A stretch of 37,504 nucleotides of DNA. Origin: Clostridia bacterium. Its GTDB lineage: Bacteria; Bacillota; Clostridia; Oscillospirales; Acutalibacteraceae. The stretch lies in contig JAFWYB010000061.1 of the NCBI GenBank assembly GCA_017517865.1, positions 1 through 37,504 on the forward strand. Direction: 5' to 3'. Numbering within the stretch: position 1 is the stretch's first letter; each line of letters opens with the position of its first letter. Shown here one piece after another: positions 6,180-9,760 of this stretch. The translations under genes and the position numbers were made by a program. Under the pieces are notes generated by a model, which worked only from the letters and a program-made list of their open reading frames with translations, searched no databases and was not told the origin of the DNA.

Positions 6180-7217
6180 TTATTTTTTTATATCTCCTCT
6201 GTCGGTTACAATCTCATAGCCGACAGCTCTTATTCGCTTTTTCAATCCTTCAAGCTTTTCAGCCGATTCAACACCCGTGTTAAGCTTATTGTTATATAGC
6301 ATATATCTGCTCCTTGCCTCTTCCGGTGAAAGATTGGGCATAACTACATTTGCGCCCGAAAGAATGCCTTTTTCTCTGCCGTTTTCACTGAGTGTACCGA
6401 GTGCGGTAGTAGCCGGAAGCAAAATGTCAGGCTTTATTATGCGGATAACCGATAGAAGAAAGCAGGTAAAATCCACACTCCCCGCCGGATAATTACTGAA
6501 AGGTGTATCCTTATGAGGTATAAAGGGACCTATTCCGCACATATCAGGCTTAAATTCCTCAATGAATTTAAGGTCCTTCGCTATAGTTACGGCATTCTGA
6601 TAAGGCGAGCCGACCATAAAACCGCAGCCGACCTGAAAGCCGATTTTCTTAAGCTTTTCGAGACATACTATTCTGTTTTTCAAAGACAGCTCCTCGGGAT
6701 GAAGCCTTGCATAATGCTCGCTGTCAGCTGTTTCGTGGCGCAACAGATATCTGTCAGCACCTGCAGCGAAAAGCCTTTCATAGGATTCCTCACTTCTTTC
6801 GCCCAAGGACAGAGTTACCGCACAGTCGGGATACTTTTCTTTAATTTCAGAAACAAGCGCGCAAATGCGGTCATCGGAGAAATAGCCGTCATCACCGCCC
6901 TGAAGCACGAAGGTACGAAAGCCGAGAGAATAACCGTAATCACAACAGGAAAGTATTTTCTCACAGCCGAGACGGTATCTTTCACACTTTTTATTGCTTT
7001 TTCTTATTCCGCAGTAAAAGCAGTCGTTTTTACAGATATTGCTTATTTCAATAAGACCTCTGATATAAACCGTATTACCGTATATTTCTTTTCTGAGCCT
7101 CACTGCTTCATCGCGCAGCAACTCGGCTGCTTTTTCATCATAGCCGCAGATAAGCTCCTTATATTCATCAAGGGTAAGTCTGTGCTCTTTTATCAGCTTG
7201 GCTATTATGTTATTCAT
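6180..7217 (-). CDS. hydE: [FeFe]-hydrogenase maturase HydE (radical SAM)
   Basis: Radical-SAM enzyme that acts on the HydG-derived Fe(CO)2(CN) synthon during building of the 2Fe subcluster. The 345-residue protein has the [4Fe-4S] motif C62-KND-C66-FY-C69 after a BioB-like ISNIC lead-in. It also has the LQGGDDG region near 110-116 and a TIM-barrel core of normal length. The ATG at 7217-7215 lies inside the end of the TM1266-like gene (8-base overlap) with only a weak Shine-Dalgarno, so translation is probably coupled to that gene. Confidence 0.96.
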   Translation of the reverse strand: MNNIIAKLIKEHRLTLDEYKELICGYDEKAAELLRDEAVRLRKEIYGNTVYIRGLIEISNICKNDCFYCGIRKSNKKCERYRLGCEKILSCCDYGYSLGFRTFVLQGGDDGYFSDDRICALVSEIKEKYPDCAVTLSLGERSEESYERLFAAGADRYLLRHETADSEHYARLHPEELSLKNRIVCLEKLKKIGFQVGCGFMVGSPYQNAVTIAKDLKFIEEFKPDMCGIGPFIPHKDTPFSNYPAGSVDFTCFLLSVIRIIKPDILLPATTALGTLSENGREKGILSGANVVMPNLSPEEARSRYMLYNNKLNTGVESAEKLEGLKKRIRAVGYEIVTDRGDIKK

Positions 7218-7467
7218 TACAAATCACACCCGAATAAGCAGTTTTTACGCTGACGCCTTCAAGTCTTCCTATTCTGCCTGAAAGAGCAGATATAGTATTC
7301 TGAGGTGCATCAATCGCAACGCTAATAATGTTTATTCCCCTTTTTCTGTAAGGAATACCCATTCTGCCGATGATATACTCACCGTACTCATGAAGAAGTG
7401 AATTGAGCTCTTCAACAGTATCGCTTTTTTCAACAATTATGCTCATTACCGCAACTCTTGTTTCCAT
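7210..7467 (-). CDS. TM1266-family putative hydrogenase-system regulator
   Basis: An 85-residue ACT/NikR-C-like small protein. The stretch from MSIIVE to RMGIPYRKRGINI, followed by SVAIDAPQNTISALSGRIG, matches the family named putative iron-only hydrogenase system regulator (TM1266-like), which is regularly the first gene of HydEFG loci. A regulatory role is inferred from structure and context in the family, not proved. The start chosen is the ATG at 7467-7465: GGAGG (7473-7477) precedes it by 5 bases. An upstream in-frame TTG at 7479 would start on top of the Shine-Dalgarno and is rejected. The gene is first in the operon. Confidence 0.85.
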   Translation of the reverse strand: METRVAVMSIIVEKSDTVEELNSLLHEYGEYIIGRMGIPYRKRGINIISVAIDAPQNTISALSGRIGRLEGVSVKTAYSGVICNE

Positions 7468-7486
7468 TTCCGCCTCCAAAAAAACA

Positions 7487-7513
7487 TTGCCACACCTGAA
7501 AAAGGTATGGCAA
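7487..7513 (-). terminator. Leader terminator hairpin of the hyd maturation operon
   Basis: Read on the minus strand, TTGCCATACCT and AGGTGTGGCAA form an 11-bp stem with one mismatch and a T-rich loop. An eight-T run follows, and the Shine-Dalgarno of the first gene comes immediately after. A hairpin plus T-run between promoter and first gene is the form of a transcription attenuator. Confidence 0.75.
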
Positions 7514-7594
7514 CAGAATATAGCTGTAGTATGCTTGTTAATTTAATTTCTGTCACCTTATCCTCAGAGGGAAAATCCGTCTTTATGTCAGGTT
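7509..7594 (-). promoter_or_regulatory. Candidate antiterminator/riboregulator leader upstream of hyd operon
   Basis: The transcript from the promoter at 7601-7629 would have about 125 bases of leader. GGTGACAGAA (minus strand, ending at 7557 on plus coordinates) can pair with TTCTGTTGCC (about 7509-7518) over 10 bp with two G-U pairs. That pairing would occupy the 5' arm of the terminator stem, so the two structures exclude each other. The 5' end (ACCTGA at 7588-7593) can also pair with TCAGGT in the 3' arm of the terminator. The segment between, with a CCTCTGAGG mini-hairpin near 7560-7570, could be a sensor domain. It matches no riboswitch consensus I know, so the ligand is unknown. Confidence 0.5.
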
Positions 7595-7600
7595 GTATAT

Positions 7601-7629
7601 ATTATAACAGATTTTTGTAAATAAATCAA
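7601..7629 (-). promoter_or_regulatory. Promoter of hyd maturation operon
   Basis: On the minus strand, TTGATT (7624-7629), a 17-base spacer and a perfect TATAAT (7601-7606). It sits just after the stop of the upstream minus-strand gene at 7638, giving a start site near 7594. Confidence 0.75.
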
Positions 7630-7637
7630 CAGTAAAT

Positions 7638-8384
7638 TTATATTTCTTCCGTTAAAGGTACAATACCGCCGATATCTCTGAGCTCTCCTGCATCAGTACA
7701 CTCATAGCCGCATCCGTGTTCTGAAAGGAAAGCCTTGATTTTTTCATAATCACGGTGTTTTTCGATATTGCCGAAAAAAACAACGGTATTTTTTGATATT
7801 TTACCGGAAGCTCCGCCTATAAAGCCGTAAGAGTGGCCCTCGAGTGTAATATCGCCTTTGCTGACAAGAAGACTTTCTACGCCATTTTCACAAGCGACTC
7901 TGTATATTCCTTCATCGTCTGTTACAATTGCGTTTTCGCTTATTACAAGAGTTGAACACTTGCAATAGCCCTGCCTTACGTCGAGCCTTTCCAGACAGAC
8001 TGTTTCACTAAGCAGCGCTTTATCGGCACAGCTGAATTTTCCTATTATTCTTTCGCCTGATACAGCAAAATTGAGTCCGATATCACAGGGATATTCACCC
8101 GAAACATCAGCTTCGCTTTTAATCACCTTCATACCGATGCCCGTAAGCTCTGATTCAAGCTCTGCTCTGTTTTTATCAATAATTATATTCTTACCGCCAA
8201 GATGTATTGCCGCCATATCTGCGTGAGAGCTGACAGCAGAATCTATACTGCGATTAGGTGCATTTTTTATAACAGATATCCCCTTGCGGTTAAAATATGA
8301 AAGTATGCTTTCATCATCGGTGCCGCAGATTACAGCAGTCACCTTTCCCTCAGGCAGATTAGCTTTATCAATGAACTTCATCAT
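7638..8384 (-). CDS. DUF6873-like GME-fold protein, function unknown
   Basis: A 248-residue soluble protein. Repeated beta-rich blocks (HADMAAIHLGGKNIIIDKN near 54-72, CKCSTLVISENAIVTDD near 141-157, YGFIGGASGK near 186-195, ELRDIGGIVPL near the end) resemble the family called DUF6873 in NCBI naming, with a fold like guanidino-group modifying enzymes (amidinotransferase/dimethylargininase superfamily). A histidine, acidic residues and a cysteine are present in suggestive positions (H54, D57, C141/C143), but I cannot confirm a catalytic triad. The start overlaps the radA stop by 4 bases (ATGA), so it is co-transcribed and probably translationally coupled. The assignment is by memory of motifs. 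Confidence 0.6.
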   Translation of the reverse strand: MMKFIDKANLPEGKVTAVICGTDDESILSYFNRKGISVIKNAPNRSIDSAVSSHADMAAIHLGGKNIIIDKNRAELESELTGIGMKVIKSEADVSGEYPCDIGLNFAVSGERIIGKFSCADKALLSETVCLERLDVRQGYCKCSTLVISENAIVTDDEGIYRVACENGVESLLVSKGDITLEGHSYGFIGGASGKISKNTVVFFGNIEKHRDYEKIKAFLSEHGCGYECTDAGELRDIGGIVPLTEEI

Positions 8385-9760
8385 AACACAAGAGCCTCAA
8401 ATGCTTCACGTATCGTTCTTACGCCTACGATTTCAATCTCATTTTTAAGTGATGAAGAGATATTCTTCAGGTTGCTCTTAGGAATAATACATTTATTGAA
8501 GCCGAGCCTTGAAGCCTCCTTTATTCTCTGCTCACAGTGAGATACGCCTCTTATTTCACCTGCAAGACCTATTTCACCAAAGGCGAGCACATCATCTCGA
8601 AGTGCATAATCCTTCAACGAGGATACAAGAGCCATAGCGATAGTAAGGTCCAGCGCCGGCTCATCAAGCTTCATACCGCCTACAATGTTGATGTAAGCAT
8701 CACTGTTGTTGAAATAATATCCGCCACGCTTTTCAAGAACCGCAATAAGCATATTAAGGCGGTTAAAATCAAAACCGTTTGATATTCTTCTCGGGTTGCC
8801 AAAGCCGCTTGTGCATACCAAGCCCTGAATTTCTGCAAGAAGCGGTCTTGTACCCTCCATAACACAGGCAACACAGCTGCCCGGTGTATTATTAGGTCTG
8901 CCCGAAATAAGCATTTCAGAGGGGTTCTTTACCTCTTTGAGTCCCGTATCGTACATTTCAAAAACGCCTATTTCATTTGTTGAACCGAAACGGTTTTTGA
9001 CTGCGCGCAATATTCTGAATGAAAGATTTCTTTCACCTTCAAAATAAAGCACGGCATCTACAATGTGCTCAAGCACCTTGGGTCCTGCAATATTACCGTC
9101 TTTATTGACGTGACCGACCATAATAATAGGAATTGACAGGCTTTTTGCAGTTCTCATAAAGAGGTTGGAGCTTTCACGCACCTGAGTTACACAGCCGGGT
9201 GAAGAATTAAGCTCCGCAAAATTCATAGTCTGTATTGAGTCGATAATAACAAGATCGGGAGCAGTAGCCTTTATATGCTCACATATAGCCTGAGTATCGG
9301 TTTCGCAAAGCACCGAAAGATTTTCTGAGCTTACACTCAGTCTGTCAGCACGAAGCTTGATCTGACTGTAGGACTCCTCTCCCGAAACATAGAGAATTCT
9401 GAGCGCTTTGCCAAGCTGCTGACAAATCTGAAGAAGAATCGTTGACTTGCCTATGCCCGGGTCACCGCTGAGAAGCACAAGAGAGCCCTTTACAATTCCG
9501 CCGCCAAGCACACGGTCAAGCTCCTTCATTCCCGTTTTATATCTCAACTCATTATCAGGCTTTATATCTGAAAGAGAATAAGATGTTACACTGCGGCTGC
9601 CCTGTAAAAACGCACCTTTTCCTTTACCGCTCGGCTCAGCTTCCCTTATCTCCTCCTCAAGAGTAGACCATTCTCCGCATTCCGGACATTTACCAAGCCA
9701 CTTGGATGTTTCATACCCACAGCTTGAACAAACATATACTGATTTTGACTTCTGTGCCAT
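8381..9760 (-). CDS. radA: DNA repair protein RadA (Sms)
   Basis: RecA-like branch-migration ATPase that processes recombination intermediates. The 459-residue protein has the N-terminal C4 zinc finger (C11, C14, C25, C28), a Walker A GDPGIGKST at about 99-107, the RadA-specific KNRFG motif near 257, and a C-terminal Lon-protease-like domain without an obvious active Ser/Lys dyad, as usual for RadA. The length is typical. AGGAGG precedes the ATG by 8 bases, and the ATG overlaps the cwlD stop by one base (TAATG). Confidence 0.97.
   Translation of the reverse strand: MAQKSKSVYVCSSCGYETSKWLGKCPECGEWSTLEEEIREAEPSGKGKGAFLQGSRSVTSYSLSDIKPDNELRYKTGMKELDRVLGGGIVKGSLVLLSGDPGIGKSTILLQICQQLGKALRILYVSGEESYSQIKLRADRLSVSSENLSVLCETDTQAICEHIKATAPDLVIIDSIQTMNFAELNSSPGCVTQVRESSNLFMRTAKSLSIPIIMVGHVNKDGNIAGPKVLEHIVDAVLYFEGERNLSFRILRAVKNRFGSTNEIGVFEMYDTGLKEVKNPSEMLISGRPNNTPGSCVACVMEGTRPLLAEIQGLVCTSGFGNPRRISNGFDFNRLNMLIAVLEKRGGYYFNNSDAYINIVGGMKLDEPALDLTIAMALVSSLKDYALRDDVLAFGEIGLAGEIRGVSHCEQRIKEASRLGFNKCIIPKSNLKNISSSLKNEIEIVGVRTIREAFEALVL

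What the first reader, a model, noticed from the sequence alone, without database searches (positions are those of the whole stretch)
7487..7629. Putative attenuator/riboswitch controlling [FeFe]-hydrogenase maturation
A near-consensus promoter is followed by a leader of about 125 bases that ends in a stem plus eight T, directly before the Shine-Dalgarno of the first gene of the TM1266-hydE-hydG-hydF operon. GGTGACAGAA in the leader can pair over 10 bp (two G-U) with TTCTGTTGCC, which holds the 5' arm of the terminator, and the leader's first bases (ACCTGA) can pair with the 3' arm. Mutually exclusive stems of this kind are the hallmark of regulated termination. I know of no riboswitch class assigned to hydEFG operons; a metal, FeS, SAM, redox or protein signal is possible.
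Basis: partly seen in the sequence, partly recalled or inferred. Interest (0 to 1): 0.78.

Follow-up and report, generated by a model that had tools for sequence, protein, structure and literature searches.

The report
Hidden RNA switch before hydrogenase genes
A short RNA hairpin at the very start of the message for hydrogen-enzyme assembly genes is conserved in many gut Clostridia and appears to decide whether transcription stops early or runs on; it matches no RNA family in the library searched, so it looks like a new, testable gene switch whose signal is still unknown.

Summary
On the minus strand a promoter-like site starts a ~127-nt leader of TM1266-hydE-hydG-hydF, with a terminator (7515-7478) and competing stems. 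The leader begins with a 39-nt hairpin (7593-7555) that proves to be a conserved RNA: both arms read CUGA-NNN(N)-(A)AAG around a covarying 3-4 bp helix. The motif precedes TM1266 in 41 of 70 related loci and in 45 of 80 titled-genome loci. Order-wide, 50 of 59 matches precede TM1266, hydE or a TM1266-linked ABC-transporter/nitrogenase-like operon. A script found a terminator-like hairpin after 91 of 97 copies. The hairpin's 3' strand (AAAGG...) covaries both with its partner inside the hairpin and with its own terminator's 5' arm, as expected of a real switch. No Rfam 15 family reached its threshold, and my literature searches showed no description. Best reading: a transcription attenuator in which a folded or bound hairpin means termination. 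The partner is unproven: TM1266 protein (~0.4) or a small ligand/metal (~0.4). Against a dedicated TM1266 partner: most TM1266-bearing Clostridia sampled lack a detectable motif. New member of a known kind.

The parts
7601..7629 (-). promoter-like site: TTGATT (7629-7624), 17 nt, TGN-TATAAT (7606-7601)
   Evidence: a -10-like hexamer (at least 5 of 6) lies 3-15 nt upstream of 70 of 97 motif copies, against 16-25 of 97 in ten shuffles
7555..7593 (-). sensor hairpin (conserved motif): left arm ACCUGACAUAAAG (7593-7581), loop/P3 (7580-7568), right arm CUGAGGAUAAGGU (7567-7555)
   Evidence: found by models R1 and R2 in the window and in many relatives; pair counts
7548..7557 (-). antiterminator 5' strand GGUGACAGAA; shares GGU with the hairpin's right arm
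   Evidence: sequence; folds; related pairing across leaders
7509..7518 (-). antiterminator 3' strand UUCUGUUGCC; contains the start of the terminator 5' arm
   Evidence: sequence
7478..7515 (-). intrinsic terminator: 13-pair stem-loop 7515-7485 and seven T 7484-7478
   Evidence: terminator-like hairpin found by script after 91 of 97 motif copies
7210..7467 (-). TM1266-family gene, first gene of the operon (ORF from TTG 7479; ATG at 7467 preceded by GGAGG 7477-7473 more likely)
   Evidence: TIGR03959 115 bits, PF21699, PDB 2nzc E 8e-13
6180..7217 (-). hydE
   Evidence: TIGR03956 556 bits
4710..6158 (-). hydG
   Evidence: TIGR03955 918 bits
3495..4694 (-). hydF
   Evidence: TIGR03918 560 bits

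Best explanation
The leader is a cis-acting transcription attenuator. The transcript probably starts within a few nucleotides of a roughly 31-45 nt hairpin whose two arms both read CUGA-NNN(N)-(A)AAG, making a pseudo-two-fold-symmetric stem with non-Watson-Crick G.A/A.A steps on both sides of a short covarying helix. If this hairpin stays folded because its partner is bound, its 3' strand (AAAGGU...) is held, the terminator forms and transcription stops (OFF). If it is not held, the same strand pairs with the 5' arm of the terminator (antiterminator) and the operon is transcribed (ON). Shown by comparison: hairpin, terminator and the two competing pairings are conserved and covary. Inferred: OFF polarity (about 0.75). 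Inferred: the partner is the TM1266 protein or a complex of it, acting as feedback or sensor on the operon it heads (about 0.4); a directly bound small ligand or metal is about equally likely. The confidence below is for the attenuator and its switching logic, not for the partner.
For: Motif upstream of TM1266 in 41 of 70 related loci, the window included, at 20 bits or more; a 42nd match, L064, was judged coding and not counted. In 45 of 80 titled-genome TM1266 loci at E<=1. Order-wide scan of 394 genomes, 59 matches: 45 before TM1266, 4 before hydE, 1 before a FecCD permease/ATPase-TM1266 operon, 2 at contig ends, 7 elsewhere. Helix covariation: score 0.320 vs 0.165 shuffled on 33 hand-chosen rows and 0.299 vs 0.157 on 93 distinct rows (that alignment is fitted to the model). 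In 94 motif sequences from loci outside the first alignment, the central three pairs form in 86.9% of cells vs 74.6% shuffled, maximum of 2000 shuffles 79.4% (these sequences were found with models that hold the structure, which favours pairing). Terminator-like hairpin after 91 of 97 copies. The hairpin's 3' strand pairs with its own terminator arm in the best 10% of all terminators in 32 of 91 (9 expected, p 9e-11), and in 30 of 79 after thinning; the p values treat leaders as independent. An A for G in the hairpin's 3' strand goes with UCU in the terminator (13 of 21 vs 9 of 68, Fisher p 3e-5) and with U for C in the hairpin's 5' strand (columns 2-60). A -10-like hexamer lies just upstream of 70 of 97 copies. 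Folding reproduces the order hairpin, antiterminator, hairpin plus terminator in the window and in L022.
Against: No expression or probing data. 28 of 70 related TM1266 loci have no match at 20 bits (29 without L064) and 35 of 80 none at E<=1. In the class sample 240 of 391 genomes carry TM1266 but only 15 carry a motif beside hyd genes (that scan used stricter filters and loses weak copies), so TM1266 mostly works without this RNA. The window's own leader is not the best example: CAU faces GGA instead of GUG, and 24% of other leaders' terminators pair with its AAGG strand as well as its own does. The outer pair (column 1) is unpaired in 52 of 93 rows and the fourth helix position (column 10) in 64 of 93. 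Some script-found terminators are long and doubtful (L200, L177, L167, L144), and six copies had none by script.
Confidence: 0.82

Rival explanations
1. Riboswitch in the strict sense: the symmetric hairpin binds a small ligand or metal (iron, an iron complex, or another cofactor precursor) directly, without protein, and folding then causes termination. TM1266 would sense the same compound at protein level.
For: Unpaired or non-Watson-Crick positions (CUGA, AAAG) are invariant or nearly so in the 33 rows. One operon kind with the motif includes a FecCD-type importer whose ATPase carries a C-terminal TM1266 domain, reminiscent (recalled, not tested) of molybdate or methionine transporters that carry ligand-sensing C-terminal domains and sit under Moco or SAM riboswitches. 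TM1266 often occurs without a detectable motif, so the motif need not be its target.
Against: The hairpin is very small and nearly a perfect two-fold repeat, which suits a protein dimer. In the six genomes where the motif does not stand before a free-standing TM1266 gene (G128, G448, G707, G759, G818, G767) TM1266 is nevertheless encoded elsewhere.
Confidence: 0.4
2. Same attenuator but opposite polarity: partner binding favours the antiterminated form (ON switch).
For: The 5' strand can also pair with the terminator loop/3' arm in some lineages, giving a well-formed antiterminated structure.
Against: The conserved core uses the AAAGG strand inside the hairpin, which excludes the antiterminator; the 5'-strand pairing is not general (16 of 91 in the best 10%).
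Confidence: 0.2
3. A DNA operator: CTGA....AAG is a direct repeat just after the -10 box, bound by a DNA-binding repressor, and the terminator is constitutive.
For: The two arms are a direct repeat in DNA and lie right after a -10-like box in 70 of 97 copies.
Against: Central helix and terminator pairing covary as RNA; spacing between the repeats varies with the loop; a terminator-like hairpin follows 91 of 97 copies.
Confidence: 0.04
4. A plain leader terminator that tunes basal expression, with no regulated switching.
For: No experimental evidence of regulation; terminators alone are common.
Against: A strongly conserved non-coding motif and two mutually exclusive, covarying pairings would not be kept for a fixed terminator.
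Confidence: 0.05

Closest known systems
Transcription-attenuating riboswitches (general)
   Same: 5' conserved sensor hairpin, antiterminator and intrinsic terminator that share strands; upstream of a metal-cofactor operon
   Different: No Rfam 15 family reached its gathering score (weak unrelated hits); ligand unknown; sensor is one short symmetric hairpin
Protein-dependent attenuators whose RNA-binding protein is encoded in the operon (PyrR, L10(L12)4, BglG/LicT-type; recalled, L10 also seen in the listing)
   Same: Small hairpin near the transcript start; first gene encodes a small putative regulator (TM1266); two-fold symmetry suits a dimer
   Different: TM1266 has no demonstrated RNA binding that I found and is common without a detectable motif
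TM1266 family (TIGR03959, PF21699; structure 2nzc)
   Same: The first gene of the operon is a clear member
   Different: The family is annotated as a putative regulator; the listings I saw did not show an RNA leader attached to it

Membership tests
Any Rfam 15 family | covariance-model score at or above the gathering score | tested here: not met
   0 matches in the window; in 20 relatives' loci only a 5S rRNA; best sub-threshold hits on three leaders are weak and unrelated
Transcription attenuator with terminator/antiterminator | intrinsic terminator before the first gene | tested here: met
   after 91 of 97 copies by script
Transcription attenuator with terminator/antiterminator | conserved, mutually exclusive alternative pairing with the terminator | tested here: met
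Transcription attenuator with terminator/antiterminator | readthrough changes with a signal | not testable with these tools
   needs transcription assays
Riboswitch (strict) | conserved aptamer with covarying stems | tested here: met
Riboswitch (strict) | direct ligand binding without protein | not testable with these tools
   needs in-line probing
Autogenous protein-binding leader (PyrR-like logic) | operon encodes the putative binder next to the RNA | tested here: met
   45 of 59 order-wide matches are before TM1266; 53 of 57 matched genomes have TM1266, largely by that adjacency; the 4 without are matches not beside these genes
Autogenous protein-binding leader (PyrR-like logic) | protein binds the RNA | not testable with these tools
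   needs binding assay
BglG/LicT antiterminator hairpins | BglG-family regulator and its RAT site | not tested
   no dedicated search made; resemblance is only a short hairpin for a dimer (recalled)

The most novel reading that the evidence does not exclude
TM1266 is an RNA-binding regulator: a symmetric oligomer of this small protein grips the two-fold-symmetric CUGA/AAAG hairpin. In doing so it ties [FeFe]-hydrogenase maturation, and in some genomes a nitrogenase-like enzyme with its own importer and HydE paralogue, to the state of a shared iron or cofactor pool through transcription termination.
Probability: 0.38. Interest if true: 0.88.

Novelty: new member of a known kind. Interest (0 to 1): 0.77.

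Why it matters
How H-cluster maturation genes are regulated is, as far as I know (recalled), largely open, and TM1266 is annotated only as a putative regulator. This RNA gives a concrete short handle: a 31-45 nt hairpin with a defined set of target operons (TM1266-hydE/G/F and a TM1266-linked importer/nitrogenase-like operon) on which ligand or TM1266 binding can be tested directly. If it responds to iron or a cofactor intermediate it would be a sensor for hydrogen metabolism in gut Clostridia.

Tried and rejected
Rejected: known Rfam classes. DNA operator (RNA covariation). Motif as a general genome repeat (own genome: one match at E 8.6e-5, next 0.25 and 4.1). Twenty matches that are not beside these genes were read as chance: L104, L106-L109, L118, L121, L125-L127, L129-L131, and L243, L247, L249, L250, L252, L256, L258. 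Twelve of the twenty lie inside a same-strand open frame (L104, L107, L109, L118, L121, L126, L129, L130, L131, L247, L256, L258); the opposite strand was not checked. L250 has motif plus terminator but no recognisable gene and stays open.

Weak or against: the leader-start/terminator-3'-arm pairing is lineage-limited. TM1266 is not tied to the motif in one direction: 240 of 391 class genomes have TM1266, 15 have the motif beside hyd genes. About 50 genomes with HydE lack TM1266 by my hand comparison of the lists; none of them has a motif beside hyd genes, but with so few motif genomes this proves little.

Rows dropped and choices: the 70 related loci are those fetched for 70 of the 78 genomes with TM1266; mostly the weakest matches were not fetched. 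Of 34 hand-collected cores L027 was left out of alignment A1 (33 rows); A1 was chosen from the 70 printed leaders, so it is a selected set. The L064 match (20.2 bits) was judged coding and not counted. In the held-out test one L115 row was dropped, one further row failed the anchor filter, and matches judged chance plus contig-end L235 were excluded.

Literature: searches (listings only). I searched by term within the main texts of PMC11109978, PMC8632094, PMC6429828, PMC2864571 (no hydrogenase, hydE or hydG), and saw riboswitch passages of PMC5317091 and riboswitch/hydE passages of PMC3543383. Nothing that I saw describes this RNA. Supplements could not be searched, and most subscription papers are not held, including the 2017 survey of 224 candidate RNAs (its DOI recalled, not held).

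Full report
What is there. On the minus strand of the window a promoter-like pair TTGATT-17-TATAAT (7629-7601) is followed, seven bases on, by ACCUGACAUAAAG and the rest of a ~127-nt leader, a 13-pair stem-loop with seven T (7515-7478), an SD (7477-7473) and the TM1266-family gene. Promoter-like sites of this quality are expected by chance in the stretch scanned (6 found, 4.9 in shuffles); it is the position relative to the motif that counts (below). The operon continues with hydE, hydG and hydF, each well above its NCBIfam cut-off. Full-length folding gives hairpin plus terminator (-29.2 kcal/mol); enforcing GGUGACAGAA/UUCUGUUGCC gives -25.9 and brings in the ACCUGA/UCAGGU pairing. A 93-nt transcript, before the terminator's 3' arm exists, prefers the antiterminator.

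A conserved RNA. I compared 70 TM1266 upstream regions (the window and 69 related genomes, of 78 genomes with TM1266). A motif stood out: CCUGACAYNAAG - stem-loop - CUGNGUGAAAGG. Written as a hairpin it is almost two-fold symmetric. Both arms read CUGA, three or four variable bases, then (A)AAG; the variable bases pair with each other, and the flanks would form U-A, G.A and A.A/A.G steps. On 33 hand-chosen copies 8 of 10 counted pairs show changes on both sides, covariation score 0.320 against 0.165 in shuffles. On 93 distinct copies the score is 0.299 against 0.157 (this alignment is fitted to the model). Not every position pairs: column 1 is unpaired in 52 and column 10 in 64 of 93. In 94 copies from loci outside the first alignment the central three pairs form in 86.9% of cells (shuffled 74.6%, maximum of 2000 79.4%). 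Examples of the exchanged helix are CAUC/GAUG, CGCC/GGCG, CGUU/GACG and CAG/CUG. The window's own group is an outlier: CAU faces GGA, and in L009 AAC faces AGC, wobble-type or mismatched steps.

Where it occurs. Model R1 finds the motif before TM1266 in 41 of 70 related loci at 20 bits or more (a 42nd match, in L064, was judged coding). In the 147-genome relatives scan there are 39 matches: 34 before TM1266, 1 before hydE (G128) and 4 elsewhere. In the 391-genome class scan 15 of 23 matches are beside TM1266, hydE or hydG. Of 80 titled TM1266 loci (the best 80 of 589 found) 45 have a match at E<=1, including Loigolactobacillus rennini (24.8 bits) and, more weakly, Holdemanella porci (20.8) and Sporobacter termitidis (19.3), while Catonella morbi, Lachnobacterium bovis and Petralouisia muris have none. 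With R2 in 394 genomes of the order: 59 matches, 45 before TM1266, 4 before hydE (G707, G759, G818 at 81-104 nt, G128 at 418 nt), 1 before a permease operon with an ATPase-TM1266 fusion (G767), 2 at contig ends, 7 elsewhere. Of the 57 matched genomes 53 have TM1266, for most simply because it is the next gene; the four without are matches not beside such genes.

A second kind of target. In L259, L264, L265, L260, L261 and L262 the motif and TM1266 head a different operon. Families were checked as follows. L259: FecCD permease, ABC ATPase with a C-terminal TM1266 domain, NifH-like protein, one nitrogenase-component-1-like protein, no HydE seen. L260: HydE-family enzyme, NifH-like protein, two component-1-like proteins. 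For L262 only the ATPase was checked; for L263 the permease, the ATPase, HydE and the NifH-like protein were. The rest rests on resemblance of the translations. A second, longer-frame TM1266 domain was located in G118, G105 and G126 and in G606, G813 and G767; G508 has two TM1266 matches. In L263 the motif stands before the permease, and that genome's free-standing TM1266 is on another contig. TM1266 is the protein common to both kinds of operon.

The switch. A script found a terminator-like hairpin (below -8 kcal/mol) between motif and gene for 91 of 97 copies; a few are long and doubtful, and two of the six misses (L180, L145) show a terminator by eye. The motif's last seven bases plus ten more pair with their own terminator's 5' arm better than with other leaders' terminators: own mean -11.4, others -9.0 kcal/mol, in the best 10% for 32 of 91 (expected 9, p 9e-11). 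After thinning similar leaders it is 30 of 79 (p values treat leaders as independent). The window's own leader is middling by this measure (24% of other terminators do as well). Among the 51 leaders not of the commonest GGU class, the exact complement of the five-base strand is in the own terminator arm in 20 of 51 against 12.4% in swapped pairs. An A instead of G in this strand goes with UCU in the terminator (13 of 21 against 9 of 68, p 3e-5) and with U instead of C in the hairpin's 5' arm. One strand that covaries with two alternative partners is what a working switch predicts. The additional pairing of the 5' arm with the terminator loop/3' arm is strong in some lineages only (16 of 91, p 0.018). 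A -10-like hexamer lies 3-15 nt upstream of 70 of 97 copies (16-25 in shuffles), so the hairpin is probably the transcript's 5' end.

How it most likely works. Folded hairpin: AAAGG is occupied, terminator forms, operon off. Open hairpin: AAAGG... pairs with the terminator's 5' arm, operon on. The pairing logic is shown by comparison; the polarity is inferred. The partner is not known. For TM1266: it is the first gene in 45 of 59 order-wide matches. In five genomes where the motif precedes hydE (G128, G448, G707, G759, G818) and in G767 it is encoded elsewhere. A symmetric hairpin suits a symmetric oligomer (entry 2nzc has four chains; its assembly was not examined). Against: TM1266 is widespread without a detectable motif (240 of 391 class genomes have it, 15 have the motif beside hyd genes); Thermotoga maritima also has it, but its leader was not examined. 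For a direct ligand: the importer operon and an ATPase with a C-terminal TM1266 domain, similar (from memory) to transporters that carry ligand-sensing domains and lie under cofactor riboswitches.

Novelty. No Rfam 15 family reaches its gathering score in the window, and in 20 relatives' loci only a 5S rRNA does; sub-threshold matches on three leaders are unrelated. Nothing that I saw in my literature searches describes it (listings, in-text term searches and passages); the large 2017 survey was not held. I therefore call it a new member of a known kind: an orphan attenuator leader, riboswitch candidate or autogenous protein target.

Noticed in passing
L259, L260, L261, L262, L263, L264, L265: Operons with a FecCD-type permease, an ABC ATPase fused to a TM1266 domain, NifH-like and nitrogenase-component-1-like proteins and in some a HydE paralogue, headed by the same RNA motif (families checked only in part); substrate and product unknown.
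   Followed up: partly
L182:176-260, L055:454-534: Two motif copies in tandem upstream of TM1266 (scores 20.2 and 20.0 in L182; 17.3 and 24.4 in L055).
   Followed up: no
L115:1096-1123 (minus): Second motif-like copy (22.8 bits) between TM1266 and hydE, 20 nt before hydE, where AAAGG could also act as Shine-Dalgarno; possible translational version, or chance.
   Followed up: no
L250 (G598:C21:6404-6438): Motif plus terminator with no recognisable gene downstream.
   Followed up: partly
G143:C11:15543-15791, G104:C6:68150-68395 (L023, L027): TM1266 matches of two genomes of one genus each contain one in-frame TGA; pseudogene, misassembly or recoding not examined.
   Followed up: no
window 7638-9760 (minus): Upstream neighbours are a DUF6873 protein and a RadA/Sms family protein.
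   Followed up: no
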